64,000 nucleotides of DNA, taken from a virus. A program made the position numbers and the translations under genes. Where the stretch lies: positions 1 through 64,000 of IMG/VR virus record IMGVR_UViG_3300007276_000039. One strand, 5' to 3'. Below are positions 25,082 to 63,429 of this stretch, piece by piece; position 1 is the stretch's first letter; every line of letters starts with the position of its first letter. The notes under the pieces were generated by a model that ran no database searches, was not told the origin of the DNA, and saw nothing but the letters and a program-made list of their open reading frames with translations.

Positions 25082-25414
25082 TCAGCAGTTCCATCGCTTC
25101 AAGGATGCTCCCTTTGGTGTGAGTTTACCACCTTTACTGGTCGGGCCTTTGACACCCGACATGCGAGCGCAAAACGATTTACGACGCTTTGCCTTCTTTG
25201 AGCCGGGTTTGAGTTTGCTTGGTTTGGTTGTCACGGGAGGTTTGAGGTTTGCACCACTCTTACGCTTGGCGGCGGCACGACCTTTAGCGTTCAGTCCACC
25301 TTTCTTACTGTGCTTATTTGGGTTATAACCATGAAATGGCTTACTTTTTTTGGCCTTCATTACAGCAAAGGCTAATTCAGCAGGCGAACAACAATCACAA
25401 AAATCGTAATCCAT
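25082..25414 (-). CDS. DUF6321 basic protein, 110 aa
   Basis: The segment KKGGLNAKGRAAAKRKSG, followed by NLKPPVTTKPSKLKPGS, KAKRRKSFCARMSG and the terminal RWNC, is the hallmark of DUF6321. That family is widespread in marine phage genomes and is known without a function. The protein is very basic (Lys/Arg-rich), so nucleic-acid binding is likely. The Cys-rich N-terminus (FCDCCSP) may bind metal. ATG 25414 overlaps the giant gene stop; an in-frame GTG at 25417 is possible. Confidence 0.85.
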   Translation of the reverse strand: MDYDFCDCCSPAELAFAVMKAKKSKPFHGYNPNKHSKKGGLNAKGRAAAKRKSGANLKPPVTTKPSKLKPGSKKAKRRKSFCARMSGVKGPTSKGGKLTPKGASLKRWNC

Positions 25415-43400: not shown

Positions 43401-43413
43401 CGATTGCAACCAT
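25414..43413 (-). CDS. Giant virion protein, 5,999 aa, with terminal laminin-G-like domains
   Basis: One uninterrupted reading frame of 18 kb (predicted mass above 600 kDa) with GAGGTGA before the ATG. Residues ~10-225 look like a LamG/concanavalin domain (FFFDGVSDSVIIP, later VNGEIVSQQ and a GxxEAIHFSNE end). Residues ~5555-5785 are a second one (MALWLKADSLDL, SWKDSG, AEIIQYNRAMS). Between them are two copies of a ~67-residue Ig-like module at ~3511-3580 and ~5029-5097, and FTGCVG-type tail motifs. The long central part is Gly/Asn/His/Tyr-rich and matches nothing I know. No membrane segments or signal peptide. Located after the tape measure region, it is most likely the tail-tip or fibre protein that meets the host. 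It could instead decorate the whole virion. Confidence 0.85.
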   Translation of the reverse strand: MVAIGRSSHAFFFDGVSDSVIIPQGRFTKTGVKDSSGTKVMTKTLQGVGDSATINDKAAGDFVIEAWVVPDCGGVIAHREGQFTLEMGTVDTPGPAVFSVNVESIAGPSYFRLATAYDASTRWDGIVYPQQEHGGIHDSYNRYDKSNYGDATNLNFNNRPLYHVVAGIQKNRVFLAVNGEIVSQQDIPPETRLARSTEHVYLGGKGGEFRGAIEAIHFSNEFDENMLQPSMAIKGNTTSALFRFEEPIDIVEGTYEFSAFTAASDGTTKTLTMTAADAQTLIARLTGKAYDATSPTTTFTSTPYSMGNYKVVDYYTNSGTAATLSVAHTPYNLLINPGAINRNTQKPNQSPPERVRLESINGNTGVVTFNSIHVDFINGTSGLRGALHSRTANVDNYFVVIGADLLIDNGTGKPYQPPHYGTQIFDKTGQMVLDEGNASNHGLVYSSQMATDTTNNPYAVTWPATLDTLFQVGHSGRHTFSHIIGHEYMRRYPKPSELIIDQQADGSADIVQMAYDSNTRDIDEMFPMNSLLDFYSETLEAPIARIENSSSVATIVNNGMPASKKELIAIGGSGFKYAPFMLKGPVPEAGDIDENNRLFHLTPESESRVALLHVPALRTSHDLAPYVEVHYNAIDLTGASMGQSTPMLMVTKTVPAGSHILTGTTRVLDVITSDLANTTLYSPGGVIYLSNAISGYGSLMQESHTLIGDNTGGQDSDTELDLSRTPALYTPPNDVNAEPAGPPKAVARSHNGGTHESVYHRLAIEAMSSSQSDTITDEGAGKRTRQPTTDKSGTGVFDLGPTTHSSRVFEMFNIIDNVLITDEAGIMAKIFVQPSVKSRVNQLSLVRSLGAGDSPNIASIMFLMSRCRVRGVSKQESPETNMTTVVITASGIADSFVNENVSAVGSGSPDSHVVKEIEPNAPVVTVTLGGPGQGGVNTKPTFDPSPLMRLPGSTRRSCATQARIVTTTGAFSMSVTPLNNDSPDLKSWGTICFPQVGRIFLEDGASAAYTEKTGAGFYFSESNAVASRTFLDGAGTAYATFHEWCNATGIISQGSAGTYLTSVYIFNDGDFDNDSLTQDGSTVNDRLFQSLDDVTHDYQLGTQYASTRAMVEIPIFPQQFFDHTDLGIFPGPDNSMKVHVDATYTAHTWNPTPVGRRANDVATADKSAKSAYSYTINNQNYIESATILRIEDATASHKHTSTGTGTGGTTYTNHFHIFVSHPNMFPDATNSSDATPTIVAADEVGNLKGINRLRRVFLTSGEWAVYDNNPALDGFLSIPINATGGYFDGYSETFFQNAIVGAKIHTGGGFRNETLMPIDSDAELPSSDLEGRSPFYYDAANMKTQGGNLDYGLRQYVSAVEFKAGPLANPHAPRTISKRAKSTIMQVQEISGNATDGFQFNIILDDASLFPDVPYSRDSNNNSIAEQGDLTYIAEIGTDTPLEVYYLGKLDSIAGANSVLVTTPKNVSLTVGDFVGAEFKLVKAGNAFQSIVNPANMQNQELQTATFHPSTSAEQWTFVGATSAGASTTLNITNGNNRFAHANTIGTNIRTGDLLFLEDSSNVIKYVGEVADVKSNLTSGAHTVVTLVAANAVAVANGDDVRIGVGTVVQNDADAILNRSWVYPFAQGGLRDGDTVWMNMTINNPHAVEGLFAKSRGVMNEAFVWSGFNGGEGALANRPRDSIPLENFLIGNSCLETAQNFAQHVNKTVEMNYEAMGLDATQAPTVAYIDPYLSTDGNARVLLFDVGHDREFIAFHDLHMQVQSSADTPTIGFTRNIAYEGGTIKLDKHLISVNGGAPHYFTTQIDVANGFPSENKYVRSTQQSKFIESAYAHNVPNTASQDLVDGTPGSDTKYTLQDPSSLGNNPLLRGKGHGHFVHTGLYHEETGNTHTVGDSVLPRVQPAVASVYYANEIHKLIRKAKEGDLLLRELKLHRATQNPATHSLKDASTLFDTPDGTRVISAFLCLKGKRNTTLELASHEESRLQHLKHWTQMDFVRRMTLDLGEVGVKEGVTDIEAAAREMVRLINQGGALNGRTHARRPSQQYPGESERLDLTRIGVRQDTADPNKDPTSAHINADFAATGSTYDPAPFWYGDIAFDSHDRGSHMGYVRAHMGRVVEDINGNEGYSIVIHSTIPGASGRNFCVWLDNSKGQSSYQPQFLIGHGGRFRNFWAQPDEILSENMHPAPMPLNKDGRPFAPVSTLREFVAQEEPDEAFTSNHDITPRRNETANPKGRNISAHLGGIAHNSVNDESFETQSPSTALVKGLRMGKQATGRINFGGLVASGVPGFSPIAGKHGLGRKGDDEFDKLYNEGLPKAGTSPTAITSYSGHVNTAEITDDAVGDTPLYGFRFNDHRGQGYGVRFIYRKMDEAFANDLTTIPSTLDDEICVYFNDGDVAKGGFTIGQHMLGFGDATGRLDVTTVTMNSWRGNQWRGVYAPSAGIDCAISWDASATTLTVQLGAPFDSGQELGNHPDILGYLGFPRQNGVIQITDPMTGTTDKGTVGNVISYESRTQLNSAGDSGVHTFYGVRGSEFTASHSLTGLTATSLTNTAVSMFNASTDRIIKALISPRINWTTLMTDELMAAVTAEAINMADPNTPEGIPFDCRHMYAVDGRTFGEWGVAADAIRIRAHNPQRGARPLSTMFEASLHRDLGIEAPHLEFGEYEKLDQSSNSQWTVTAPAAFNKPVSDADIEDNHRKVDCGYLPHTVLQIRTKARGYHTNTPTPILVDSYNDPVPTKTWANNLKGLTYTSRSGDHILPALDNALVTTDFTHSDDVFTTNSGETTTHILVPAGEEAATFDSLTKLVSFGDAKVIWSGSNRFATVTSVQGANSATKLKVVAINYNEEWNTLYGASADRADVLLMLHADKDFSGYRLYGSIESEPVTYFKNGRDSNDHSVPLYFGGGFSGVVLDVNDGSQNDYSSFYTHPYSNGPTGTAGIQNANEISTAYALMDCNALLAFFPGTPYLNQHRGSINPPAYNQNNVLSADIDSGTLPNLASGQPSHVTARYTAGIVRQRPIPLIMRMPHQTARYTDHKTATPYFTTYLIYGPGQAFPFNETASNLGVVEPHPGYVVTTGNSWSKVPHSKNLPNEITNNDNDYGPPDANYQSRRNRFHWQTTLNWSPAQGTPNIGDTGASGYGLKQRPEHGYHYGEHFMNPVSGRVVANNEADYKKAHPYQHCAMAYYGIAMSADMTFHMDGGYHPGGSWMDNQMAFNPPMEKDDLQISKLFANAVQPTAYRVSGVIAKSVLAGSLGETATDFDREIIVVDGTRCQNGEELATIIGQAINENPGKGALKAMGGTFMPSMSNAQRQDRYGWIEMDYGDPSNSYQNATTGGSSQSYIEGSIAGSTRDVLEQIPACGWIRTDTGGRSHPSTAPNNSCPAFAPYHSREIYEKAGVLTVRFWLAPNKITGKAQFEDMTTWHNRCESAGITVPDFDLTAVPPNLPTKLYVWSKSGVHYHNNAYDTPRDHMTRSHFSGLVDAIDRTRPVGAMGWSGERYSYLNSLKVTTSSFTDATCDYNNATTITMDSTALLKKNMLVSGTGIPAGAFVVSITNATTFELSASTTGGAVTNGTLTFTTNLYGAGLGAWHAKLGFSPYGPASSVMSTYSHLPHYAPMRNSPEASGPISGTDNDETMLTTPYSWTYASTNTNPAYNTDKTDAEHSDYFANPVHIGDADAVPRALHHPQGVFGRAFLVISYEGELGLVAKRDRDGVTAMGDWLAVVNKTAGGVAAATAITFAGTAQWDERIHSVDRFVAPAHGGPNIEALVTNLSLPADDIPADPFLFNAPLAADIELFNAEPCYAKTGDLFFDLDESPGSFFLEDATSVERNLITDLKTSTSAELDRYGDDANYWLGDTNAFKMNQRSPAKNFSVEHVVWKRMDGGNLSLPAVNARGLGAVPFVTRVLSNTPHTMGEKLYGINRFSFETTNSAMFPIIQAQELAHPQIAAAHPDELRNVLAIPNEELQFEEMQVEDDTGQIHIIEGGSPFGTIIRTFNAVSDRSAEGFAPATAGSGVEPNLKVRLPHPDSIPGNLLIRAGFDRLQAYQNESMGTGGMMRPMSSSSIKHLFTDDTKGPRLGGTFSDHNWEHISQGSFPDPTYAGWETATGNAPLETSYELHDRTLFFHITKNGNTHSHRHPTFYTHAGGVVNAELTAVSFSGTTLTVNTAPNASLFNESIRDGRKFLRLYDPTTDKGGVASFTGISSSTFTGCVGDADFAELVKSSITTLKVVPSYYIPAGSTRFFASRRLRDHAEVSGNSPDIVHSTYITGLTLNALLCHTVYSRPKMTPMALPRMGHHFVNPTMAMLPGHFAHPAYQGLYNKHRAIRSATVKPHETLLMEEQTMSNLKTDISTTLTNNLHGYDTLHTFGALTATPSGPSDIHGGAFTLMFESKIRSDGYGVLASEGQAGVINAAGGHTIVLEAAATYTLRHHFPDPSEVGAYQIVIQPNIHKSQLMGYHANGGATALPDGSVNELTSQQVALVIGLREPDSATGAVGLVLAEATMADVRGCEVFVNELILDHDPDHGSQFTNIPPLMLYNALGVQATESPAFVKRSLPYQPQMFDNATPGMTTNIPWWSIVHKDGPDHADATGFRHLNHHRLDNYYEFLRASTGSIACQITLAGYPSIYPDIYHEVLENISLNPVCTVVSVDSTTQITVDDARGFPQKPYYGNKLEYTDVNGVRRTHTYTERSGYDSSNMNKPKQFTITAKSSFTSNLTAGTKLRLTRAYDFRPAGAIFTDSKTSMVTRILPQMLQGSRDTNSLHVADAFLCLWHPNLGRPHTFYSDSSRTWLNPLTDRAVAQKPLNSMPEHFETVHYHDAAYYASLGPFAFDRKTPAPPYEIIAHASVGTNVPSTVVSVDIPNKLITTTRRTAKLVGGTKIMIDGIAYTVQDDGGSVFDNHVLGVMPVIEPIVATIPIGSTIMAHAIGSMLTADVLDTTFGSPIIAGNFDPQGGQADASDAATKTNLNHYWPCGSRGGPLISRLDGYGYVSTSWDFPREYTFDGPVWADQDDDGSYVVTNGVVKSTYDAFTDATCDYNNDPTITMDSTAKLVVGMGVSGTGIPGSATVSSITNATTFELSASTTGGSVTNGTLTFTPVQTRTRPFGYRIGLRQPYNKPQWSLYGMRAFREAAVTGTNTSVGYPHGPLVQGETETWTYAGGSGLSNGTYPNTQLGIMERQTNFSGMLGVDKPEWQVRYSDGMRMARAFGCPVRTLRNASGVLRDWWGDGEGKGIYKLDEAVAYYLVDWWGNTRGEEVRRHPVRGFGIRPAWDAGDVYEYDRTGNKTPFDRIYNGGFPIMNTKALIDASGNISVTTGFTIPRFAGRLNNVNSNDATELVDVYFPTNAHRVGDDGHGRGLRYPTAFNEDVLTALDEPYHASGVVLSHHTAEPNMNDGYIRARNDVLQADEVPRGISARLDIAEDGLLKPEAVVSDRVETVSGDSPHKDAVSRSAPRIGLDTENVEGVDDNLIAINTEAHSLHSDRGVGQRVIVHGGMQAGSQTIGHYDLTALDFSGQPQGGAMRLSHTSNFNPLGGTYIAEARNFVSPIDDTEWGGIPTSGMALWLKADSLDLADGAAVTSWKDSGPHGFEFTQSTASKQPVYIASSSNVNNMPVVDCDGTDIMSTPFDARLNTTDVTLFVVAWSDDDDGNAQGVLETFANSPVTRAGHSLFIRWDSSDKWQWRGGADTTYTVVNSPSNAVVVNQAELVTGTIAGGDGAGSNANFELFLQGVSVGSSTGAWYVADEDPYGIGHVGSFELKGKIAEIIQYNRAMSTTERQQVEGYLAEKYGFTNNVSQWKSSNPYQTDTNGHQRTNLTDKRISYMLRPVRLLDKQHAEMFRSNLNLHSSSPQYGSNYFGATAGGKYGLYVYETTNGQASAGSYIRSTNPDTNPPYAPAYYMDISTSDTVPMSQGPKIIGTAATGFDSSLLDNEITRVVMSENTLQHYRADAARRRTHQEGESKEERMDYTVQPRFSQSLHPKGHKGDVSYNSNDHSGDAS
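28121..28325 (-). repeat. Ig-like module, copy 2 in giant protein
   Basis: Encodes about 67 residues of the giant protein (around 5029-5097) running from FTDATCDYNN through GMGVSGTGIP and ITNATTFELSAS to GTLTF. It is nearly identical to the module at 32672-32880 and related to the one in the tail tube gene at 48667-48872. The three copies imply duplication or module exchange between tail genes. Confidence 0.85.
32672..32880 (-). repeat. Ig-like module, copy 1 in giant protein
   Basis: Encodes giant-protein residues of about 3511-3580, starting FTDATCDYNN and ending GTLTF, with LVSGTGIPAG in the middle. It is about 1,520 residues from the second copy. At the DNA level long stretches (for example the part encoding ATTFELSAS) are shared, which suggests fairly recent duplication or conversion. 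Confidence 0.85.
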
Positions 43414-51492: not shown

Positions 51493-52167
51493 TCAAGACT
51501 TCATAGCACAATCGGTACACATACCCATTTCATGAATGAATAACAAATCGTCTTCATCTTCCCGATAAATACCTTTGCGGCATCTTGGACAATGTGTATA
51601 GTATTCTTGCCCCTGCCAATCATACGGGTCATTTTTCAACACACTCCAAGCATCACGAATAGCGACATCACGAGAAGTCATGATACGACGGAGGTGTTCA
51701 GCCTCAGCATCGGGGTTGAACTCTTCTTCGGGCGATTTACCTGCTTGCCATCGTTGCACTTTTGGGTCGCCATCATCCACTTTAGGGTCATCCGGTATAT
51801 CATCACGGAGTTTACCTTGCTCATCAAAAATGTCGGGTATTTCGGGCTTTTCCGGGGCAAACTCTTGGTCAACAGCGGCTTGCTCGCCCTCAACATCGGG
51901 TTCACTCAACGACTCTTCCAAGGTTTGACCCTCAAAGGGCACACGCTCGCCCATGAACTTGAGTCCATGCTCGTCGGGATTGGCTACAGCCTCACGCATG
52001 AGAGCGTCACGAGCCTGTGTGAATTGTTCACCACCGGCCTCTCCGCCAGCACCACGAAGAGCGGCTGATGCTGTTTTGTTTGCCCACTGTTGCAGGCGCA
52101 TCTCTTGTCCGTCTTCAGTCAACACCTTTTGTCGGTGCGGTCGCATTGCTTTGATAAGTACCTTCAT
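51493..52167 (-). CDS. Acidic protein with C-terminal zinc ribbon, 224 aa
   Basis: The N-terminal ~50 residues are basic. The middle (residues ~70-150) is acidic and Pro-rich, probably disordered. The C-terminus has CPRC and CTDC about 25 residues apart, a zinc ribbon. I chose ATG 52167 because GAGG lies at good spacing; a GTG at 52173 overlaps the upstream stop. It could be a head-tail assembly factor. No family recognised. Confidence 0.65.
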   Translation of the reverse strand: MKVLIKAMRPHRQKVLTEDGQEMRLQQWANKTASAALRGAGGEAGGEQFTQARDALMREAVANPDEHGLKFMGERVPFEGQTLEESLSEPDVEGEQAAVDQEFAPEKPEIPDIFDEQGKLRDDIPDDPKVDDGDPKVQRWQAGKSPEEEFNPDAEAEHLRRIMTSRDVAIRDAWSVLKNDPYDWQGQEYYTHCPRCRKGIYREDEDDLLFIHEMGMCTDCAMKS

Positions 52168-52169
52168 GT

Positions 52170-52469
52170 TCACAGCCTCTTCTTTTCATCACGGTGCGCT
52201 AAGTTGTATTCCATTGGTTTACCGCAAGTAGCACATGTGGCTCTCCATAAGAAATGAAGAAATCCACAATGTACACAGCGTGTACCCGAACCAATGTTAA
52301 GGATGTCTCCTATTTCTTGATTACGGTTGCGCTGAGATTGAGTCACACCTGCAAGTGGGTGGTCTGTGTTGGATACGACCTCACTACCGTATTGATAGTC
52401 GGCTTTGCGACCTTGCTTACCAGCACGGTTAATGTCGCTCAAGTCTATGTTTCGGACATCAAACCCCAT
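52170..52469 (-). CDS. Small zinc-ribbon protein, 99 aa
   Basis: The N-terminal half is polar and basic. The C-terminal half has CVHCG and CATCG about 15 residues apart, a compact zinc ribbon, with Trp between. It precedes another zinc-ribbon protein in the head-completion region. Such doubles may arise by duplication, but sequence outside the Cys residues is not similar. Confidence 0.65.
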   Translation of the reverse strand: MGFDVRNIDLSDINRAGKQGRKADYQYGSEVVSNTDHPLAGVTQSQRNRNQEIGDILNIGSGTRCVHCGFLHFLWRATCATCGKPMEYNLAHRDEKKRL

Positions 52470-54083: not shown

Positions 54084-55184
54084 TCACTTGAGGTCACGGA
54101 TTGAGCCGTGTCCACCGAAGAAAGTCGTCCATAGTTCTCCCATGGTGCGGTACATTCCTTCTTGTCCGAGGCGGTTGATAGCGAATGGGTCGCCAGTTTC
54201 AATACCGCTCTCAAAGTATTGGGTTGGAATTGCAGTGCTGAAGTACAAGTAATCCGTGTCAAGGAAGTACATACGGCTCAAAGTGTCCGTTTGAATGTCC
54301 TTGGATGGGATGATTGGGACACCGTTGTAGGTGGCCACAATGAAACCTGCTTCAATACCGGGAACACCTTTCACACCGTTGTAGGTAGGGGTGACACGCT
54401 TCTCTTCCATAAACCGCTGTTGGCTTTGGAGGAGTTGTTGTAGGCGCATCAAGGTGTCGTATCCAGTAAGAATAACCTTGGGGTTTCCACCACGAGTCCA
54501 AATCTTTTGGAACAGGTCATCCAACTGGTCAAGGGACAAGTTGCGGTCAGTACCACTGTTTTCATTGTGCTCAGCGAGCGACCACGAGTTTGCACTGCGG
54601 TCAATGGAGTACATGTCTTCAGTTGAACCTGCGGAAGCACCAACGGTCACACGGTCAAGGGATTCAAAGTCGTTCCCTGCAACGGTGGCTTTGTCGGTCG
54701 TAAGCATCTTGTTCACATGCTCAGCGTGGTGCTTACCCATTTCTTCCTTGAGAATTGCACGAATGTCGCCCAATCCATCGTCCTTGTCGGACAGGAACAT
54801 TGCGGTTTCGCTCATGTCAAAGGTGTGAACCACAGTCTTTGGCTTGGCGGCAATGTGCTGGAAGGTTGGTTTGGTGGTGTCGGGGAGCGTAGCGTTTTCT
54901 GCAACACCGCCGCCAACCGTGAAGGAAGGACGCTCGGTGATGACTCGCCAACCACTGCGTTCCCAAGGTCGCTTGGGAAGGATGGAGAAGGCGTTGAACT
55001 CTTGGTTCAACTGGCTCCAAACCTTGCGTCCATAGATGGCTTGGTAAGTACCAGCCGTGGTGGACAGCATTGGAGCGTCAGCCTTGAGCAACTCGCTACC
55101 GGAGTAGGAGTATCCCATTGCGTTGCCTGCGCCGTAGTAGTATCGTTCCATGTCAGTAATGTTTCGGATGTAGTCTCTTGCCAT
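54084..55184 (-). CDS. Major capsid protein, HK97 fold
   Basis: A 366-aa protein directly downstream of the prohead protease/scaffold gene. The segment order fits an HK97-type shell protein: N-terminal arm (residues ~1-50), E-loop region near 70-110, the spine-helix stretch with DGLGDIRAILKEEMGKH near 135, and P-domain strands up to LWTTFFGGHG near the end. GAGGTGA precedes the ATG. Cleavage of the N-terminal arm by the viral protease is expected but no site can be named. No cross-link motif is evident. Confidence 0.8.
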   Translation of the reverse strand: MARDYIRNITDMERYYYGAGNAMGYSYSGSELLKADAPMLSTTAGTYQAIYGRKVWSQLNQEFNAFSILPKRPWERSGWRVITERPSFTVGGGVAENATLPDTTKPTFQHIAAKPKTVVHTFDMSETAMFLSDKDDGLGDIRAILKEEMGKHHAEHVNKMLTTDKATVAGNDFESLDRVTVGASAGSTEDMYSIDRSANSWSLAEHNENSGTDRNLSLDQLDDLFQKIWTRGGNPKVILTGYDTLMRLQQLLQSQQRFMEEKRVTPTYNGVKGVPGIEAGFIVATYNGVPIIPSKDIQTDTLSRMYFLDTDYLYFSTAIPTQYFESGIETGDPFAINRLGQEGMYRTMGELWTTFFGGHGSIRDLK

Positions 55185-55211: not shown

Positions 55212-56591
55212 TCATTCCCCTCGCAGGGTGCGATGTGCAAGGGCGTGAACTTCGTCCCACCCCATGTTCGCCATGTCTTGCGTTGAGGGAATGTCAATGG
55301 ATGCAACCGACTTTTGAATGGTCGTGCCTGCTCCTGCACCGATGTTGTCAATGCGCTCGGAAAGAGCCTCAATGGACTTCACGATTTCCGTAAGTGGTGC
55401 TCGTGCGTCAAAGGCGGCTTTATCAGCCTCGGATTTAGCAACTTCCATCTCGTTGTTGAAGCGAGCGGCAAAGTTGCCTTCAAGGTTGTTTCGGAAGTCT
55501 TGTTCCAAAGCGGCGGCTTTGTAAACTTCGTAAGCGGCTTCAAGGTCTGCATCACTCACATTTTCGGAGTTGAGGTAGCCCTTGGACAATGAGGCTGGCC
55601 CCATTGCTCCGGCAGGAGTTTTACCACCGGAAGCGGTGATAGCGTTGATTGCACCAGTGGAGGGAGAACCGTTCTCCTGTCCTCGGCCACGGACTTGACC
55701 ACCGAAGTAGTCAGCACCGTCAACAGCGTCGGGGTTGTCAAAGCCACCAAGTTGGGCTTTCTCAAGTTGGTCAAAGTGGAGGCGAGCACCATCAGTGTCA
55801 ACGCCAGCCGACTTGAGGGTGTTTTCCATCCAAGAAAGGTATTCGGAGGAAATAACATCGGAGTATTCTCCTTTGTCCATGTACATCTTGTCATCGTCTT
55901 TCTTTTCGTCTTTCATTTCGTCACCTTCTTCTTTTTCGGGCTTTTTTTCTTCATCACTACCCTTACCCTTCATGTGTTCACGGAGTTGAGGAGGTAGTTC
56001 TCCCTTTTCCATGGCATCCAGTCGGCTTTCAAGTCGTGACATAATTTCTGTCAAATCACTGTTTTCGTTTGTCATAGTGTTGTCCTCCTTCAAAATGCGG
56101 AACTGTGCTTCGGGGTTGATACCCTTTTCACAAATCGTCACCTCATGCAACTCCATTTTTGAAATCTCTTGGTAGTCGCCTTTTTCCATGTCGGACTTTC
56201 GCACTCGCTTGAATGCTTGCCCTCCAATAGAAAATCCACGAAGGTTGCCCTTGCGGATTTCAGCGGCTACTTCACGAGCCTTCTCTATATCGTTGCGGAG
56301 TTTAACAACAACGAACAGCCCTGTGTCATCCGTTTCGGATTTCCACATGCGTCCGTTGGAATCAATGTACGAGTCAATGACTTCGCCAACTTGAATGTTG
56401 GAGTGAGCCAACTGTACATTGCGGTACTTTTCACCCTTCATGAAGCCATCAAAGGCATCCTTTAGGGCGGAGCGAGTAATGAGGTCGCCTTGCTTATCTA
56501 CAAGTTCAACTGATGCGTAGCCAGCAACAACCAAATCGTTACCACTCTTGAGGAGAGTGATACCGTCAGTAGGTCGTTGAATGCTCAGCAT
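55212..56591 (-). CDS. Prohead maturation protease fused to scaffold-like domain
   Basis: At 459 aa. Residues ~15-170 are the HK97-type (S78/U35) protease: AGYASVELVDKQGD, LAHS with His63, GFSIGG with Ser121, and ELHEVTICEKGINPEA at the end of the domain. These supply the catalytic His and Ser. Residues ~175-459 are Lys/Glu-rich and helical, probably a scaffold (delta-domain-like) part that is removed during maturation. The last residues carry a DMANMGWDEVHALA motif shared with the protein at 63088-63429. It lies just before the capsid gene, as in the HK97 order. Confidence 0.88.
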   Translation of the reverse strand: MLSIQRPTDGITLLKSGNDLVVAGYASVELVDKQGDLITRSALKDAFDGFMKGEKYRNVQLAHSNIQVGEVIDSYIDSNGRMWKSETDDTGLFVVVKLRNDIEKAREVAAEIRKGNLRGFSIGGQAFKRVRKSDMEKGDYQEISKMELHEVTICEKGINPEAQFRILKEDNTMTNENSDLTEIMSRLESRLDAMEKGELPPQLREHMKGKGSDEEKKPEKEEGDEMKDEKKDDDKMYMDKGEYSDVISSEYLSWMENTLKSAGVDTDGARLHFDQLEKAQLGGFDNPDAVDGADYFGGQVRGRGQENGSPSTGAINAITASGGKTPAGAMGPASLSKGYLNSENVSDADLEAAYEVYKAAALEQDFRNNLEGNFAARFNNEMEVAKSEADKAAFDARAPLTEIVKSIEALSERIDNIGAGAGTTIQKSVASIDIPSTQDMANMGWDEVHALAHRTLRGE

Positions 56592-56630: not shown

Positions 56631-59600
56631 TCAAGTCCGAGACACCAACGGCTGGTCATTGTCGTAGTCTATAGAGAGTCTTTCACCCTCGTCAGTTTCT
56701 ACTTGAATGTGATTCAGTCGCTCGGTTTTCTTCTCTTTCTTTTCATCAGTAATTTTTTTCTCACCGTCAAAATCCGGTAAGGTTGACTCGTGACGAAGTT
56801 GGGTTGGGCCACGGGGCGATTCCTGCGGTGTACCAACATCAATACCCAGTCCCTTTGGCCCAGTCCATGTCATGCGCTCTTTGCTGATTTTATCCAAGGC
56901 TCGTACAATAACTTCCAATGCTTTCTTTGTTTGATTGGGTTTGAGAAGGCGATTTTCATCATCTTCTTCAAGAATACCCACGCTTTGCTCTTCAGTTCGT
57001 TTATCGCTCGGCTTCTTCGGCATTACATCACTTTCAGTTTGTTTACTGAGTAATCCTTTTACCATTAGTGGAGCAACCGACGACCAAAACGGCATAAGAC
57101 TTTCAGCCAGCACCACAGGGTAATCGGTCTTGGTCAAATCACCCATCGTGCTTTTTGGTGAATGCACACACCACACATCGCCTATTTCTTCCATGTTGTA
57201 CACTACTGTGTCAACTCCCTTCAACACGATTTGAATCTGTGAGTCCGAGATTTCAATATCGTGAGGAATAAGAATTGGTGCGAATGCTTTGGTCATGAGG
57301 TCAAGAGATTCTGTGCTGGCCGCACCCTCTCCTTCACCCTCCCCTTCCAACTCCTTGACTTGTACATTGTACACAGGGCGGTTTTTGCGGTTTTTCTTGG
57401 AAATACCCGTGATGGATGCACGAACAATGTCGCCAACCTTGAACACCATACGCTGGTTATGAGCCGTACCCACATCCATGTAATGTTCACCATCATGCTC
57501 CACAGCCCTGTTTCCAAGCCCCTCAATCTCAAGGATAGGGCCAGCACCCAACTGATAGGTGTACGGGCCTTTGCCACGACGGTCAAGGATGATGAAGTTG
57601 AAGTCTCGGCTGTCACGGTAAACAATCCACTTTGGATGTCGTCGCTCTCCACGCATGTAGGTGGATTTGTTGTCTCGCAACAAAATGTTGTCGTGGTCGT
57701 CTTTGAGGTTCTTTACAGCGTCGGCCAGTCCCTCATCGTCTGTCATACGAGTATCGTGTGGGCCGGGTACAATCACAGGCTCTTGACTGTCAAACTGTGA
57801 GCGTAGAATTTTCAACCGCTCAAACAACTGCATTTCACCCACATTGGTATCGTCGTAATTGATAATGTCAATGATGTTCAACTCTTCTTCACCAAGAATA
57901 GCGTCCAGCGTATAGTTCTTGTCGTTCATTTTTTCAAGAGCCTCTTTCGTGGCTTTGCGTAGCCCCTTCTTACGACCGTTTTCATCATACGCCGTAATCT
58001 CGTCATCACTGCGTACAATGATAATTCGCTTCCCATCATACCACTTACTTACAACCCACGAGCCGCTGAAACCACGAAGGTGTTCAAGGTCGGCCAAATC
58101 AAAAATGCGGTGCATAGGGCGAACAGCAGGACTCCATTTCGCATCGTCGCTCTTGCTCAACAACACATCCGGGTCAAGTAGAGAGGTGATGAGTTCGGTC
58201 ATCTCACTTGCCGCTACCGTAGTTGGAATCTCGCTTGCTGTTTCTGCTGTCTCCATGTTCATGCTTTGGTGAGGATTGTCGGGGTACTGAGGTGGTGGTG
58301 CATTTGCATAGACTTGTTGCGCTACTTCTTTTCCGTGAATCATAGCGGTCAAATCCTCCGGCACAGAATGATACAACCCTGTGCCTACATTTGAACCGAT
58401 GTGAATTGTACCGTCGTCGCCAAACTCAGCACCAAGTGTAGGTGTTGCTTCATACCCATGGTGCCACGCACCGCTGTCAAAGTTATCCGTCAACCCTGCG
58501 TGTGCGGGCGAAGGAATACCCAGTGGATACTGAGACATGCCTGCTGTTTCAGGAATTTCCAAGTCGGGTGTGAAGACACCTTCCTCTTCTTCAAGTACAC
58601 GAGGGTCAAAGTGAATAATCGTGTCAAGGTGATTCTTGGTGTCGTTTGTTTTACGGGATTTTGATTGACTACCAAAGCCCTTTGCACCGTGAATATCACC
58701 TTTGACGGCACCAATACCAGCGGCTTTCATTGAGTCTTTGAATTGCTGTGGGTTAAGTTTCATACCCATGGCTCGTGGAATACCGTGAGAAAGATGTCCA
58801 CCCCATGCTTTTATGTCAGTTTGTTGTGCAAAGTGGTTAATGGCTTGATGATACCCGTTTTCTCGTGCGTGGCGATAGAACGCCTCATGGTCGTCCAACT
58901 CCTCTTCGGGCTTGTTCATCATCTCTTCGTCGGTGAAATGATTGAGGTCAAGCCCGTCAATGTTCGGGATTTTACCACTGAGAAGAATGTTCTTAATTGT
59001 AGAAACTTGTAACGGCGCACCTCTTTCACCCACCATATCAATGAGTTCTTGGGCTTTCACTTTTGCAACAGGAGTTCGTTGGATTCCAAGTTTGTCCAAC
59101 AGTTTGTCAGCATTTTCATCACCCTCAACCATTATACCGTCTGTGGACAAATGATTAGCGATAGTAGCGTGGAATGGATTTTGTGCCGCAGGGTCGGTGT
59201 CTCGTACAGAAGCCTGTAATCCATAATTGGTTGAAGAAACACCGTGTACACTGTGAGGAACAGACACAATGTAGCGTTGAGCGTCACGCATCAGTTGATG
59301 GGTGTTTGCGATAAACTTCTCCGGCTCGTCGGGATTGAAAGCATCGGGGTCATGCTCAAGGTATTTTGGTAGAAGAACATCTCGTGCAACCTCAGCAATG
59401 GTTTGTCGGTGGCCACCAAACAATTGCTCCATACGAGTGGCATCAAGTTTCCACATTGTGTTTTTACTCTTCTTTTGTGTGCTTTGCTGTACCTTTTCCA
59501 ATTGTTGAGTCGTATCGTTGATTTCAGCCATCAACGGTTGCAATTCTTCAATGGGTGCGCCAGTGGTTTGCTTTTCAGTCAACTCTTGATTTAATTCTTC

Positions 59601-62417
59601 AAGCATTGTTGTGAGTTCGGATTCTTGTTGCGAAGCGGGTAACATACCGCCGAATTGAAGCAAACGAGAAACGGCATCCTTTTCGTCAGCCGCCATTGTG
59701 GTTTTTGTTTTCTGTGTCTTTTTCTTCGCTTGCAGTTCCTCAGTCATGGTTTCCGTCATGCTTTGAAGAGAAGAAAGCAACTTCTGTTCATCAAACTCAC
59801 CAAGACCTCGGCCCAACAAAGCAGTGTTTAATTCGGGATGCTTATCTGTAACGACACCGGGTGCCATCGGGAGAGTGTTTCTACCGTGCATAAGGTACTC
59901 AAGAATCTCCTTTGGGTCTTGTGTACCCAGTATTTTTGACGCTTGAGTAATGGCCGTCATAGCGTGATTCATATCGGGATTGGTCAACACTTGATTCTTC
60001 AACGCATTGAACGAAAAGCCACTACCACCGCCCCATCGCATAAAATCAATGAAGTGTTCTTTGCTCTCCCCACCACTGAATGCCTCATCTCCACGAAGGA
60101 AGTCTTGAACTTTCATCAGTGATTTTTGTGCTGGTTGATGAGGGTGATTCATACGCCCGCCAAGCGTTTCAAGGAAGTGAGCCAGTTGTGCGTTCTTGTG
60201 CATATTGCTGTCCGAAGGAGATGCGCCGTAGGATGTGAAGGCACCCACATGATAGGTGGGAATAATTGTGTGTGGATATGTCAACGGTTTGAGATGGGTG
60301 CCAAACCTGTCCTTACGCTCTTTGTCCGTCATGTGGCGAATCGTGTATTCGTAATCGGGGTTGAGTGTCGTTTTGTGTTCTGTGTAGTTGTTCTTGCCGG
60401 TTGAACCGTCCCGGTACGCTCGTTTTTTGGAATGCCCTACGGGAGAAAGCAAGTTTTGTAGCAACTCTTTTTGGTTGAAGTATGAAAAGCCCTTACCAGT
60501 AGAAACAAATTGCTGTGTGCTTGTGTTTACCTTTTTCATTTTTTCGCCAAACTCACCAATCAACTTTGTTTTTAATGGCATGAAGTGATGAGCGAGCGTT
60601 GTGTTATCGGGATTGGCATTGATGTAATTTGCACCAGCATCGCTTAGTTCTGTGAATGGCGAAAGACCGTCCTCATCAGCATGTGTGGCGTGAAGGATGT
60701 CATGGTAAGTTGCAAGCGTTATACCTGCTCCGCCCGTTTTTGCAAAGGCTGAGTCCCAAAAGCGACCGGGGCCGTAAGTGAAACCGTCACTGTGGTTTCG
60801 CCAGTAATTCGGTTTTTCCTCTGTTGGATGAGGGCCGTGTGGGGAAGTAAAAAAGGCCCGATGATTGCGAGCATCCTTGATACCAGCATGAAGTGAAGAG
60901 TTCGCCTTAGCCATGGATTCAATGTCGTCAATCAAGTCAGCGTTGACAATTGGTTCTTCCAATTTACCGTGAATTGGATGGTCGGTCATCAACTCCCGTG
61001 TCTTAGGGTCGTAGCCAGCCAAATAAAGCAAATCAGCCTTGCTCATTCGCACATCGTCAAGACTTCGCTTTCTTCCCTTTACTTTGAAGTGGCTTGCCAT
61101 TGCATCTTTCATTTCGTCTTGGTCAAGTTCTCTCATTGGGTTCTTGTCCACATAAAGGCGTGGTAGAAACTTGTGATGCCCCGATATACCGTAGTTGTCT
61201 CGGATGCGTTCAAGAATAATTTCTGAGAGTGAATGACCATCAAATTCATCCATAGGCTCGTGAGCAAATCTACCCATAGCCTGTTGCAAAAACATGTTGC
61301 TTTCACCAGCAATGTAGTCGTTGTCATTGTTTTCTTGATGGTAGTGTGCATTTCGCCCCATATGTGTCATTGGACGCATAGCCCAATTCATTTCGGGAGT
61401 CATACGCATGAGGGCGTTGTATTTGAGGCGAGCAGAAGGAAACTTTTGTCCGTTAGGTAGCGAAATCAAATCATGGTCGTCAAGACCCTTTTCACCGATA
61501 TGCTCCATGATGGCTGTGCGTTCTTCGGGGTCAAACCATTCAAGGCCAAGCATGTAGCCAAGGTGCCCAAGCCGTGTTGGGTGTTCTTCATACTTGTCGC
61601 TGAGCATCATGTTGCTATCGTCATCAGCCTCCCACATGGCCGCTCGGTCAGCAAAGTGTTCTTTGCGAAGTTGCTCTTTCATCTCAGCGTTGTCCATACC
61701 TTCAGCCAGTAATTCCTCTTGACGATTCTTGTTCCGCTTTAACCAACGGAAATAATCTCGCTCGTAGAGGTCATGCTGGTGATGAAGAAGTGTGCCGTTT
61801 GGACGGGTATCACCAAGAATGTTTACCTTCTTTCCTCCTTTTTGCTGAAACCCACCGACAAGAGGATGGTCTTTACCGAGAGTATCAAAGAATTGCTTTT
61901 CCATTTCCTTCTCGGCTTCACCATGCCCACCCAGTGCCCAACTTCGTAGCATCTCTACATAGGCAGGCATCCCCGACACTGCGTTGGTACGAAGAAGCGG
62001 GTGGTTGACTTCGTGAAACGGGAAGTGGTGCCGCTGGTATGGATGTGTGCCGTCCTTTGGTTGGTAGTACGGCCACATTGCATGGCCGTGCTTTTTGTTT
62101 ACAGGTGATTGAAGCCCGTCTTTCCATACATGGTTGGTCGGCTCGCCATGTGAGTGTTGAAGAGCGAACAAGTAGCCCATACCTTCGGGATATTTGTAAT
62201 CGGTTTCACCGACTTTTACTGCATCTTTTTCTGCTTGTTCTTTATTCTTGTAAATCATCTCAGCCGTGGCTTTGAGAGATTTGAACAACGGTTCGCTTGG
62301 AGTCGTGTCAAGTGCTTCGTAGGCAAGAATGTATTCAGCCGCCGAATAAACAAGGTCAAGACCATCATCCAGTGATTTAAGCAGTTGGTTGCTACACACA
62401 AAGAAATGGTCGTTCAC
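56631..62417 (-). CDS. 1,928-aa head-region protein with C-terminal ATP-dependent DNA ligase-like domain
   Basis: The first ~1,400 residues match nothing I recognise: they are His/Met-rich, soluble, with helical Gln-rich coiled parts (~950-1020). From ~1435 to ~1690 there is a ligase-type nucleotidyltransferase: motif I KWYDGKR (candidate Lys1458), the motif III region LDAILGEEEL (~1504), ERLKILRSQF, then a YMRGERRHPKWIVYRD stretch and an OB-like FKVGDIVRASITG (~1655). The motif IV Glu and the lysines of motif V look replaced (ILLRD, VYR). The enzyme may be divergent or inactive. The GTG start follows GGTGAT. It lies between head genes and protease, so it could be packaged. Confidence 0.8.
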   Translation of the reverse strand: MNDHFFVCSNQLLKSLDDGLDLVYSAAEYILAYEALDTTPSEPLFKSLKATAEMIYKNKEQAEKDAVKVGETDYKYPEGMGYLFALQHSHGEPTNHVWKDGLQSPVNKKHGHAMWPYYQPKDGTHPYQRHHFPFHEVNHPLLRTNAVSGMPAYVEMLRSWALGGHGEAEKEMEKQFFDTLGKDHPLVGGFQQKGGKKVNILGDTRPNGTLLHHQHDLYERDYFRWLKRNKNRQEELLAEGMDNAEMKEQLRKEHFADRAAMWEADDDSNMMLSDKYEEHPTRLGHLGYMLGLEWFDPEERTAIMEHIGEKGLDDHDLISLPNGQKFPSARLKYNALMRMTPEMNWAMRPMTHMGRNAHYHQENNDNDYIAGESNMFLQQAMGRFAHEPMDEFDGHSLSEIILERIRDNYGISGHHKFLPRLYVDKNPMRELDQDEMKDAMASHFKVKGRKRSLDDVRMSKADLLYLAGYDPKTRELMTDHPIHGKLEEPIVNADLIDDIESMAKANSSLHAGIKDARNHRAFFTSPHGPHPTEEKPNYWRNHSDGFTYGPGRFWDSAFAKTGGAGITLATYHDILHATHADEDGLSPFTELSDAGANYINANPDNTTLAHHFMPLKTKLIGEFGEKMKKVNTSTQQFVSTGKGFSYFNQKELLQNLLSPVGHSKKRAYRDGSTGKNNYTEHKTTLNPDYEYTIRHMTDKERKDRFGTHLKPLTYPHTIIPTYHVGAFTSYGASPSDSNMHKNAQLAHFLETLGGRMNHPHQPAQKSLMKVQDFLRGDEAFSGGESKEHFIDFMRWGGGSGFSFNALKNQVLTNPDMNHAMTAITQASKILGTQDPKEILEYLMHGRNTLPMAPGVVTDKHPELNTALLGRGLGEFDEQKLLSSLQSMTETMTEELQAKKKTQKTKTTMAADEKDAVSRLLQFGGMLPASQQESELTTMLEELNQELTEKQTTGAPIEELQPLMAEINDTTQQLEKVQQSTQKKSKNTMWKLDATRMEQLFGGHRQTIAEVARDVLLPKYLEHDPDAFNPDEPEKFIANTHQLMRDAQRYIVSVPHSVHGVSSTNYGLQASVRDTDPAAQNPFHATIANHLSTDGIMVEGDENADKLLDKLGIQRTPVAKVKAQELIDMVGERGAPLQVSTIKNILLSGKIPNIDGLDLNHFTDEEMMNKPEEELDDHEAFYRHARENGYHQAINHFAQQTDIKAWGGHLSHGIPRAMGMKLNPQQFKDSMKAAGIGAVKGDIHGAKGFGSQSKSRKTNDTKNHLDTIIHFDPRVLEEEEGVFTPDLEIPETAGMSQYPLGIPSPAHAGLTDNFDSGAWHHGYEATPTLGAEFGDDGTIHIGSNVGTGLYHSVPEDLTAMIHGKEVAQQVYANAPPPQYPDNPHQSMNMETAETASEIPTTVAASEMTELITSLLDPDVLLSKSDDAKWSPAVRPMHRIFDLADLEHLRGFSGSWVVSKWYDGKRIIIVRSDDEITAYDENGRKKGLRKATKEALEKMNDKNYTLDAILGEEELNIIDIINYDDTNVGEMQLFERLKILRSQFDSQEPVIVPGPHDTRMTDDEGLADAVKNLKDDHDNILLRDNKSTYMRGERRHPKWIVYRDSRDFNFIILDRRGKGPYTYQLGAGPILEIEGLGNRAVEHDGEHYMDVGTAHNQRMVFKVGDIVRASITGISKKNRKNRPVYNVQVKELEGEGEGEGAASTESLDLMTKAFAPILIPHDIEISDSQIQIVLKGVDTVVYNMEEIGDVWCVHSPKSTMGDLTKTDYPVVLAESLMPFWSSVAPLMVKGLLSKQTESDVMPKKPSDKRTEEQSVGILEEDDENRLLKPNQTKKALEVIVRALDKISKERMTWTGPKGLGIDVGTPQESPRGPTQLRHESTLPDFDGEKKITDEKKEKKTERLNHIQVETDEGERLSIDYDNDQPLVSRT

Positions 62418-62429
62418 GCTATCACCGCC

Positions 62430-62576
62430 CTATTGGAGCGGTACAAATTGTGGACAAGCGTGCAAATCCATTCCGCCATGTTGCGGCAATTGACATCCTG
62501 TGCGTTCAACGCCTCCACACAGACCACAAATAACTGGTGCACCGCTTTCACGCATTGCCGCTTTTGGGTTAGGCAT
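62430..62576 (-). CDS. Zinc-finger miniprotein, 48 aa
   Basis: This gene lies in the gap between two larger ones. ATG 62576 overlaps the upstream TGA (TGATG). The product has CGLCGG, a second Cys about 12 residues on and another near the end, a likely zinc knuckle. The fit between neighbouring stop and start supports it. Confidence 0.6.
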   Translation of the reverse strand: MPNPKAAMRESGAPVICGLCGGVERTGCQLPQHGGMDLHACPQFVPLQ

Positions 62577-63091
62577 CAACGCCCACCCGCCGTGTCTTCT
62601 CGCTCAGCCCCTCGTCCCTCATGAGGATTCATACGAGAGCCGAGGCGTTGAGTGTCAATGGCTTCTTTGGGCTTCTTTTTCTTGGGAGCATCCTCAGTCT
62701 CAATGGTGCGTCCGTTAGTGGTAAAGTAACCACTTTTGGTTTGTCCACCCGATTCAGCGTGGAAAGAAGGATTGACATCGGTGATTTTCTCAGCCTTGAA
62801 GCCCGGTTCGGCTTTGGCCATTTTACCATGAGACTTGTTGCATTGTGCCTTTTGCTTTTCCGAGCATTCCGAATACTTCTTACCGAAGTTCTTCATACAG
62901 TATTTATCTTTGGTAGCCATGTCAGCCTTAGCCATTTTGCCACCGCAACCCATTTTCATACATTGGCCCATTTTGTTGAGTTTACCACCTTTACACTTTG
63001 GACAATCTTCACCTTTTAGCAATTCGTCAATTCGTTGTTCAAGTTCAATGGCCTTTGTCAAATATCCGTTTTCTACTGGTCGTGGTTTCAT
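62576..63091 (-). CDS. Cys-rich protein, 171 aa
   Basis: Residues ~28-85 contain at least eight Cys (CPKCKGG, CMKMGCGGK, YCMKNFG, CSEKQKAQCNK), suggesting one or two metal-binding domains. The flanks are Lys-rich and disordered-looking. I chose ATG 63091 because GGAGGGTG lies upstream; the frame is open further back. It may be a scaffold- or portal-associated protein. No enzyme family recognised. Confidence 0.7.
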   Translation of the reverse strand: MKPRPVENGYLTKAIELEQRIDELLKGEDCPKCKGGKLNKMGQCMKMGCGGKMAKADMATKDKYCMKNFGKKYSECSEKQKAQCNKSHGKMAKAEPGFKAEKITDVNPSFHAESGGQTKSGYFTTNGRTIETEDAPKKKKPKEAIDTQRLGSRMNPHEGRGAEREDTAGGR

Positions 63092-63429
63092 TGTACACCC
63101 TCCTTTGCACCTAAAGCCAATTCGTGAATGTCTTCCCACGACATGGCATGAATGTCCTCATTACTCATTGTGCCTATTTCGGGTGAACTCTTGAGAAGAG
63201 CACCACCTTCAAGAGCCATATCTCCCCGGAAAGGGTCAACTTGTAAGTCATTTGTGAAAGGAGTAGAGACATTGACAAGTCCCATTTTACGAAGAAGTTG
63301 TTGTGGGTTGTTGATGAGTCTTTTGAGAGCATCATTTTCAGCCTTAAGAATTGAAAGATTGGAATCCATAGACTCCATCTTATTGATGAGAACACCAATC
63401 AATTGTTCAGCATCGGATGATTCACTCAT
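63088..63429 (-). CDS. Small coiled-coil head-assembly protein, 113 aa
   Basis: The N-terminal half is an amphipathic helix (LIGVLINKMESMDSNLSILK) likely to form a coiled coil. The C-terminal end carries DIHAMSWEDIHELA, similar to the last residues of the protease/scaffold protein. Both features suggest an assembly or scaffold partner. It overlaps the next gene by 4 bases. Confidence 0.65.
   Translation of the reverse strand: MSESSDAEQLIGVLINKMESMDSNLSILKAENDALKRLINNPQQLLRKMGLVNVSTPFTNDLQVDPFRGDMALEGGALLKSSPEIGTMSNEDIHAMSWEDIHELALGAKEGVQ

What the first reader, a model, noticed from the sequence alone, without database searches (positions are those of the whole stretch)
56631..62417. ATP-dependent DNA ligase-like domain embedded in a 1,928-residue protein of the head gene cluster
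Ligases of viruses normally sit in replication operons as stand-alone enzymes of 300-600 aa. Here a motif I lysine (KWYDGKR), a motif III-like GEEEL, ERLKIL and an OB-like segment follow ~1,400 unrecognised residues, in the late operon between small head genes and the prohead protease. No separate ligase was recognised in the early half. The protein could be packaged and seal nicks in virion DNA on entry, or be made late for genome finishing. The motif IV and V residues look changed, so activity is an open question.
Basis: partly seen in the sequence, partly recalled or inferred. Interest (0 to 1): 0.85.

Follow-up and report, generated by a model that had tools for sequence, protein, structure and literature searches.

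The report
Dead ligase domain in giant head-cluster protein
A very large protein encoded among the head genes of marine archaeal viruses ends in a domain folded like a DNA-joining enzyme whose key catalytic residues are missing, so the 'DNA ligase' credited to these viruses is probably a retired enzyme reused as a non-catalytic part.

Summary
Window 62417-56631 (-) is one unbroken 1,928-aa frame between small head genes and the prohead protease of a magrovirus-like record. Residues 1425-1716 have the adenylation + OB fold of archaeal ATP-dependent DNA ligases by prediction (mean pLDDT 87; Z 22.1 to Pyrococcus furiosus ligase over 269 residues). By sequence it is not a working ligase. In 166 distinct relatives the catalytic-lysine position is never lysine (W/Y/L/F/I), the first motif V lysine is never present, and KxDGxR occurs nowhere in the domain. 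The nearby K1458 is one residue out of register and absent in 88 of 166. Yet the domain is the most conserved part of the protein (dN/dS 0.00-0.06), and 279 of 281 uncut frames holding it are 1,800-2,562 aa. In 51 records, all PF01068 matches lie in this giant gene. Papers credit magroviruses with an ATP-dependent DNA ligase; one passage places it beside the prohead protease gene, so probably this gene. Best reading: a catalytically dead ligase fold reused as a binding module of a late head-operon protein. What it binds, and whether it is packaged, is untested.

The parts
56631..62417 (-). Giant late head-operon protein, 1,928 aa, single ORF (GTG start)
   Evidence: full-length relatives; 279 of 281 uncut frames 1,800-2,562 aa
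58152..62417 (-). N-terminal about 1,422 residues, His-rich, no recognised domain; less conserved than the ligase-like part
   Evidence: No other Pfam match in 25 relatives, no PDB match with the full-length profile; block identities; composition
57603..58151 (-). Adenylation (nucleotidyltransferase)-like domain, residues 1423-1605, key catalytic residues lost
   Evidence: AF2 mean pLDDT 87; Foldseek and VIA matches to DNA ligases; PF01068
58026..58046 (-). Degenerate motif I, KWYDGKR (residues 1458-1464); W1459 sits in the catalytic-lysine slot
   Evidence: HMMER alignments to 4eq5, 3rr5, 9dfa and a separate MAFFT alignment with intact ligases; slot W/Y/L/F/I in 166 of 166
57672..57698 (-). 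Degenerate motif IV, DHDNILLRD (residues 1574-1582), in place of a ligase 'HEGLMAKR' segment
   Evidence: slot is Glu in 21 and Asp in 35 of 166
57615..57635 (-). Degenerate motif V, PKWIVYR (residues 1595-1601), in place of 'KWLKIK'
   Evidence: first Lys in 0 of 166
57333..57602 (-). OB-like domain, residues 1606-1695; no RxDK (motif VI) string in the window
   Evidence: AF2 strands and VIA alignment up to about residue 1716; RxDK string in 8 of 166 relatives
56634..57332 (-). C-terminal tail, residues 1696-1928, with an SPxGPT motif (residues 1867-1872) conserved in the 25-member alignment
55212..56591 (-). Prohead protease (S78) gene next downstream
   Evidence: PF04586 2.8e-10
54084..55184 (-). 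Major capsid protein (SU10 / Druskaviridae type)
   Evidence: PF17236 1.3e-12; 34-36% identity to MCPs of eight Haloarcula virus records
62576..63139 (-). Small gene (187 aa) next upstream; portal and TerL lie further upstream

Best explanation
The gene encodes a giant (about 1,900 aa) late protein of the magrovirus head operon. Part of its C-terminal third is descended from an archaeal-type ATP-dependent DNA ligase core (adenylation + OB domain) that has lost key residues for self-adenylation and nick sealing, probably before the sampled family diverged, and has since been kept under strong purifying selection as a non-catalytic module. Most likely it is a minor head or internal protein that uses the ligase-shaped clamp to hold something, DNA being the first candidate, during packaging or in the capsid. 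Shown: single ORF, ligase fold by prediction and profile, loss of catalytic residues, conservation, operon position, no other PF01068 match in 51 records. Inferred: incorporation into the head, and that the loss happened once. Only a guess: that it binds DNA.
For: Fold: AF2 mean pLDDT 87.0, pTM 0.70 from 57 sequences; VIA Z 22.1 to 2cfm, 269 residues, 3.5 A, model 3-294; Foldseek 3.4e-14 to 4eq5. Sequence: 4eq5 at 3.9e-6 and 1.4e-6; 8 of 11 PDB rows at E <= 1 are DNA ligases, 3 are NarL; the only four phage records (of 50,697) that the single domain matches, weakly (E 0.3-2), are matched in genes annotated as DNA ligase (two of the four are similar Hafnia phages). Dead: catalytic-Lys slot W102 Y31 L13 F12 I8, motif V K1 slot L138 V21 M7; KxDGxR 0 of 166; in a separate alignment with intact ligases the Lys column is W37 Y11 I5 L5 F3 in 61 representatives. 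PMC4609770 (passages) states that the KxDGxR lysine carries the AMP, that Lys238 and Lys240 of T7 ligase (motif V, as I recall) are essential, and that motif VI RxDK acts in adenylation. Kept: dN/dS 0.018-0.057 (adenylation) and 0.000-0.044 (OB), five of six pairs each, against 0.043-0.134 for residues 1-1400. Context: of 111 distinct giant ORFs, MCP within 3.5 kb downstream in 83 of 83 with enough flank, portal within 3.5 kb upstream in 79 of 80, window-type protease next in 87 of 102. No other ligase: PF01068 matches in 43 of 51 records, all in a frame of 1,800-2,400 aa; PF01653 in 0 of 37. Control: the same search finds T7 and HGTV-1 ligase at 4e-39 and 1e-27.
Against: No biochemistry and no virion proteomics. 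The HMMER stretch that covers motif I is weak on its own (5.2, 2.5 and 2.1 bits), and in the separate alignment T7 ligase did not align at motif I, so the register there rests on four related HGTV-1-type ligases. The motif IV slot is acidic (Glu or Asp) in 56 of 166, including Asp in the window, and an RxDK string occurs in 8 of 166, six of them in one common loop, so losses at IV and VI are not uniform. K1458, YDG and R1464 stay conserved in the window's wide clade. The adenylation-like domain is net acidic (-7) and the OB-like domain about neutral (+1), which does not favour a DNA clamp. dS is near or above 1 in many cells. 15 of 102 loci lacked a detected protease next door (single-sequence search). 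The 51 records are mostly partial and not independent (some are near-identical viruses), so a real ligase elsewhere in some genomes is not excluded.
Confidence: 0.62

Rival explanations
1. An active but unusual ligase or nucleotidyltransferase: a one-residue bulge in KWYDGKR brings K1458 to the catalytic place, and arginines (R1581, R1601) stand in for the motif IV and V lysines. It could seal nicks in packaged or finishing genomes.
For: K1458 is conserved in 78 of 166 and in 26 of the first 35 representatives; motif I Asp in 80 of 166, Gly in 160, Arg in 132; motif IV slot acidic in 56 of 166 and RxDK string in 8 of 166; no other ligase match in 51 records.
Against: The other 88 relatives have lysine at neither place (one has Arg at the K1458 place); motif I Asp is N, S, E, Q, K and others elsewhere; motif V first Lys 0 of 166; the Ia Arg slot holds no Arg. 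HMMER aligns W1459, not K1458, to the ligase lysine in three solved ligases, and MAFFT does so with HGTV-1-type ligases.
Confidence: 0.06
2. A purely structural or assembly role: the dead ligase fold is a protein-protein module of a head-completion or internal-scaffold protein and never touches DNA.
For: Net acidic to neutral domain; many of the invariant positions lie in segments such as MHRI, LxGFxxxW and TYMxGExRHPKW; head-operon position.
Against: No partner known; the conserved TYM-RHPKW segment derives from the ligase stretch between motifs IV and V (alignments), which in ligases lies by the active site (recalled).
Confidence: 0.27
3. An injected multi-domain 'polyvalent'-type protein packaged near the portal and delivered with the DNA to act early in the cell.
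For: Size and position; HVTV-1, related by its capsid protein, has a 1,313-aa gene annotated zeta toxin at a comparable place, between a head-assembly gene and the prohead protease with three small genes between; polyvalent proteins are multidomain proteins of viruses and plasmids (PMC5512222, passages).
Against: Only one recognisable domain, and that one degenerate; no similarity to HVTV-1 gp115; that paper reports a paucity of polyvalent proteins in archaea.
Confidence: 0.15
4. An ordinary replication ligase made as a precursor and released by the prohead protease.
For: Magroviruses are published as having an ATP-dependent DNA ligase among their replication genes (PMC10768690, PMC12999244; PMC10160649, passage).
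Against: Catalytic residues missing; late operon; no PF01068 match outside a giant frame in 51 records.
Confidence: 0.02

Closest known systems
Archaeal replicative ATP-dependent DNA ligase (P. furiosus 2cfm, Thermococcus sibiricus 4eq5)
   Same: Adenylation + OB fold, Z 20-22 over about 270 residues; shared PIxPM, LN-xx-DIL, ER-K-L, STY-xx-G-xR-xx-KW segments
   Different: Catalytic lysine, Ia arginine and first motif V lysine lost; motifs IV and VI not uniformly kept; about 1,420 unrelated residues in front; about 15% identity
'ATP-dependent DNA ligase' annotated in magroviruses (Aoguangviridae, Apasviridae; group A contig_156409)
   Different: In print it is counted as a replication enzyme; here it is a degenerate domain of a giant head-operon protein. 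Identity with those accessions was not checked; the full protein matched no record of the phage collection (near records may be left out)
HVTV-1 gp115 ('zeta toxin', Druskaviridae)
   Same: Giant gene between head-assembly gene and prohead protease
   Different: No detectable sequence similarity, different annotated domain, three small genes between it and the protease
Stand-alone viral ligases (T7 gene 1.3, HGTV-1)
   Same: Same superfamily
   Different: Intact KxDGxR and EGxxxK motifs, frames of about 360-478 aa

Membership tests
ATP-dependent DNA ligase (enzyme) | Adenylation + OB core fold | tested here: met
   Predicted model only:
ATP-dependent DNA ligase (enzyme) | Motif I KxDGxR with catalytic lysine | tested here: not met
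   Slot is W/Y/L/F/I in 166 of 166; KxDGxR 0 of 166; T7 and HGTV-1-type controls keep it
ATP-dependent DNA ligase (enzyme) | Motif III acidic residue | tested here: inconclusive
   HMMER alignments do not cover motif III; the candidate GEEEL region is variable
ATP-dependent DNA ligase (enzyme) | Motif IV glutamate | tested here: not met
   Glu 21, Asp 35 of 166, window Asp; alignment gappy here
ATP-dependent DNA ligase (enzyme) | Motif V KxK | tested here: not met
   First Lys 0 of 166; second slot R 107, S 34, T 22, D 2, V 1
ATP-dependent DNA ligase (enzyme) | Motif VI RxDK | tested here: inconclusive
   String search only: RxDK in the OB region in 8 of 166, not in the window; whether that loop corresponds to motif VI was not established
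ATP-dependent DNA ligase (enzyme) | Nick sealing activity | not testable with these tools
   needs assay
Order Magrovirales (marine archaeal tailed viruses) | PolB, clamp-loader-like ATPase, chaperonin, S78 protease, HK97-type MCP related to Druskaviridae, two opposed gene clusters | tested here: met
Order Magrovirales (marine archaeal tailed viruses) | Placement by phylogeny with named members | not tested
   No tree built; no named magrovirus genome came up in the phage collection
Polyvalent proteins | Several effector domains in one polypeptide | tested here: inconclusive
   One domain recognised in 25 relatives; N-terminal 1,400 residues unread
Virion protein | Present in particles | not testable with these tools
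   position only

The most novel reading that the evidence does not exclude
A whole group of marine archaeal viruses packages a catalytically dead DNA ligase as a structural clamp on its genome (at DNA ends, nicks or the portal), a ligase-derived virion protein that binds DNA without joining it, while replication ligation is left to the host.
Probability: 0.22. Interest if true: 0.78.

Novelty: new variant of a known kind. Interest (0 to 1): 0.58.

Why it matters
Magroviruses are cited as carrying an extensive replication set that includes an ATP-dependent DNA ligase, used to argue that they need little or only part of the host replication machinery (PMC10768690, PMC12999244, both read whole). 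If that ligase is this gene, the argument loses one component and host ligase becomes a predicted dependency. It also gives a deeply conserved, testable case of a degenerate ligase fold reused inside a giant head-operon protein.

Tried and rejected
Two genes or a frameshift: rejected. Stand-alone ligase elsewhere: no PF01068 match outside the giant frame in 51 records; no PF01653 match in 37; PF09414 was tested on the window's record alone (none). A relative with an intact active site: none among 166; two partial rows (L060, L306) were dropped from that count, and L060 from the earlier count of 97. At most the best 80 of 273, 330, 378 and 422 relatives per scan were returned, so some relatives were not read. 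Cellular homologue: one scan of genome contigs matched 86 stretches, none a relative. Named phage records: none at E <= 1e-3 with the full protein (very near records may be left out). Homology to HVTV-1 gp115: none. The first structure job (14 sequences, 544 residues) failed, pLDDT 38.6, and was not used. hhalign of the domain profile against single T7 or HGTV-1 ligase sequences was uninformative, so residue mapping rests on HMMER alignments to solved ligases and a MAFFT alignment with five intact ligases, in which T7 did not align at motif I. The full-length profile found nothing in the PDB at E <= 1, although the domain profiles did. An SPxGPT tail motif as a shared virion signal: found in a second ORF of the record and in the HVTV-1 protease but in 0 of 977 other ORFs of the loci then held, so dropped. 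Philosof et al. 2017 and Prabhu et al. 2025 were not held and were not seen. No paper describing a dead ligase domain in a virus was found by the searches (one unrelated paper; none); magrovirus ligase papers came. Seen of papers: PMC10768690 and PMC12999244 whole; PMC10160649, PMC7318539, PMC8651126, PMC5332604, PMC5512222, PMC4609770, PMC11494293, PMC4284463, PMC11705971 passages only.

Full report
What was claimed and what is there. The frame is real and unbroken. On the minus strand the order is TerL, a 438-aa ORF, portal, three small genes, the giant gene, prohead protease (PF04586, 2.8e-10), major capsid protein (SU10 type, 1.3e-12). The other half of the window carries a family B polymerase, an RFC-like AAA ATPase, a PD-(D/E)XK nuclease and a Cpn60/TCP1 chaperonin. 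The capsid protein is 34-36% identical to that of eight Haloarcula virus records of the HVTV-1 group. This fits the published description of magroviruses (PMC10768690, PMC12999244); I did not build a tree.

Relatives. Seven scans of IMG/VR were made, six of them for relatives of this protein (sought intact ligases). They reported up to 422 stretches encoding a relative in one scan, of which at most 80 per scan were returned. Of 350 loci held, 21 were left aside (pieces of the window's record, comparison viruses, loci from the genome search, intact ligases); all other 329 contain the domain. Many are repeat fetches of one contig. They collapse to 166 distinct domain sequences after two partial ones were dropped, 61 at 85% identity, down to 31% identity to the window. 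Of 281 frames not cut by a contig end, 279 are 1,800-2,562 aa; L007 (in-frame stops) and L060 (frame break) are broken. No stand-alone copy was seen.

Fold. With 57 sequences AlphaFold2 gave mean pLDDT 87.0 and pTM 0.70 for residues 1423-1792. Foldseek's best solved match is the Thermococcus sibiricus DNA ligase (3.4e-14). VIA-align gives Z 22.1 to the Pyrococcus furiosus ligase over 269 residues at 3.5 A, model 3-294, that is protein residues 1425-1716. The last 75 or so residues of the model were hardly tested. In the library of viral models the best match is an unnamed 827-aa protein, A0A516LT18 (7.6e-26, 24% identity), followed mostly by viral DNA ligases and some mRNA capping enzymes. Profiles find archaeal ligases by sequence too: 4eq5 at 3.9e-6 and 1.4e-6. 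In 50,697 phage records the single domain has four weak matches (E 0.3-2), all in genes annotated as DNA ligase.

Chemistry. PMC4609770 (passages) states that the KxDGxR lysine of motif I carries AMP, that Lys238 and Lys240 of T7 ligase (motif V, as I recall) are essential, and that motif VI (RxDK) acts in adenylation. Aligned to three solved ligases without a gap, the ligase lysine falls on W1459 of the window, not on K1458; that stretch is weak on its own (2.1-5.2 bits), but in two relatives the motif I half matches PF01068 separately (E 0.0069 and 0.0015), and a separate alignment with four HGTV-1-type ligases gives the same register (W37 Y11 I5 L5 F3 in 61 representatives; T7 ligase did not align there). 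Over 166 distinct relatives the slot is W 102, Y 31, L 13, F 12, I 8, never K. K1458 is kept in 78 and is L, S, A, H, I and others elsewhere. The Asp of motif I is kept in 80, Gly in 160, Arg in 132. The Ia arginine slot holds no arginine. The motif IV Glu slot holds Glu in 21 and Asp in 35, and its Lys slot Arg in 161. The first motif V lysine is L, V or M in all 166; the second is R 107, S 34, T 22, D 2, V 1. KxDGxR occurs nowhere in the domain (0 of 166). An RxDK string occurs in the OB region of 8 of 166, six of them in one common loop, not in the window (2 of 97 in the earlier set); whether that loop is motif VI was not established. T7 ligase and four HGTV-1-type ligases keep KxDGxR and EGxxxK. 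Motif III could not be judged. A one-residue bulge that puts K1458 in the pocket is possible only in the part of the family that has it, and the motif V and Ia losses remain.

Selection. Between the window and a relative 66% identical over the whole protein (L011), identity is 87-89 per 100 residues in 1401-1700 but 38-69 matches per block of 88-100 aligned residues over 1-1400. In six pairs dN/dS was 0.018-0.057 for the adenylation part and 0.000-0.044 for the OB part, five estimates each, the sixth saturated; residues 1-1400 gave 0.043-0.134 where an estimate was possible. dS is near or above 1 in many cells, so these values are rough. The degenerate domain is not decaying.

Context and other ligases. 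Of 111 distinct giant ORFs in the first 177 loci, the capsid gene lies within 3.5 kb downstream in 83 of 83 with enough flank, the portal within 3.5 kb upstream in 79 of 80, and a protease like the window's starts within 300 bases in 87 of 102 (single-sequence search, so the 15 misses may be divergence). In 51 records (own, 21, 14, 15; twenty of them over 80 kb; not all independent viruses) a PF01068 match was found in 43, always inside a frame of 1,800-2,400 aa; the other eight hold the giant gene of the most diverged clade, which PF01068 does not reach (shown for one of them). No NAD-ligase match occurred in 37 records. The same search finds T7 and HGTV-1 ligase at 4e-39 and 1e-27, and none in HVTV-1, vir519 or vir335. 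Most records are incomplete, so this is not proof of absence.

What is in print. PMC10160649 (passage) says almost all magrovirus vOTUs encode DNA ligase; PMC10768690 and PMC12999244 list ATP-dependent DNA ligase among replication genes. [quoted passage not shown] That is this gene's position, so the gene was very likely already annotated, as an enzyme. I could not open the original paper or check the accessions.

Mechanism. Best reading: a ligase core was captured by a late head-operon gene, lost its chemistry, probably before the family spread, and was kept as a non-catalytic clamp or docking module of a head or internal protein. Loss of key catalytic residues is shown (confidence about 0.9 that it does not seal nicks); head association is inferred from position (about 0.7); DNA binding is a guess (about 0.35), and the acidic to neutral charge does not help it. 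HVTV-1 has another giant gene, annotated zeta toxin, at a comparable place, unrelated in sequence, so the position may favour large delivered or internal proteins.

Verdict. Observation confirmed; nick-sealing interpretation not supported; a new variant of a known fold with a probable correction to published gene lists.

Noticed in passing
window 25414-43413 (-): A 5,999-aa ORF fills 18 kb of the structural arm; only a weak Laminin_G_3 match near its C-terminus (1.3e-3), none in its first half.
   Followed up: partly
window 63088-63429 (-) and 55212-56591 (-): A small head-cluster protein and the prohead protease end in a similar C-terminal peptide (MSWEDIHELA / MGWDEVHALA), perhaps a shared assembly signal.
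   Followed up: no
window 51493-52173 (-); record 67526-67756 (-), 78855-79955 (-), 81174-83033 (+), 84317-85681 (-): Several ORFs share a short motif like EPMDxAWxxLK, twice in one of them.
   Followed up: no
L023:3005-3847 (-), record about 83.0-83.8 kb, outside the window: HMGL-like gene (PF00682, 3.9e-22); an HMG-CoA lyase is published for Aoguangviridae (PMC10768690).
   Followed up: no
L024:10539-14480 (HVTV-1 gp115): 1,313-aa gene annotated zeta toxin at a comparable operon position; it holds a repeated sequence block and shows no similarity to the magrovirus protein.
   Followed up: partly
L007:534-6353: In this contig the giant gene is interrupted by two in-frame stops; real variant or assembly error unknown.
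   Followed up: no
residues 1856-1872 of the giant protein; record 72362-74143 (-): The GLGID...ESPRGPT tail stretch is conserved in the 25-member alignment; a similar DPQGPTEN string lies near the end of another ORF of the record and SPSGPT near the end of the HVTV-1 protease.
   Followed up: partly
L021, L027, L029, L030, L031, L033 (N-terminal edge of the domain); also L011, L050, L070, L096, L132: KxDG strings occur in 11 of 97 domains away from the motif I site; in one divergent clade KxDG[RK]P lies about 30 residues before it, a trap for motif-based annotation.
   Followed up: no
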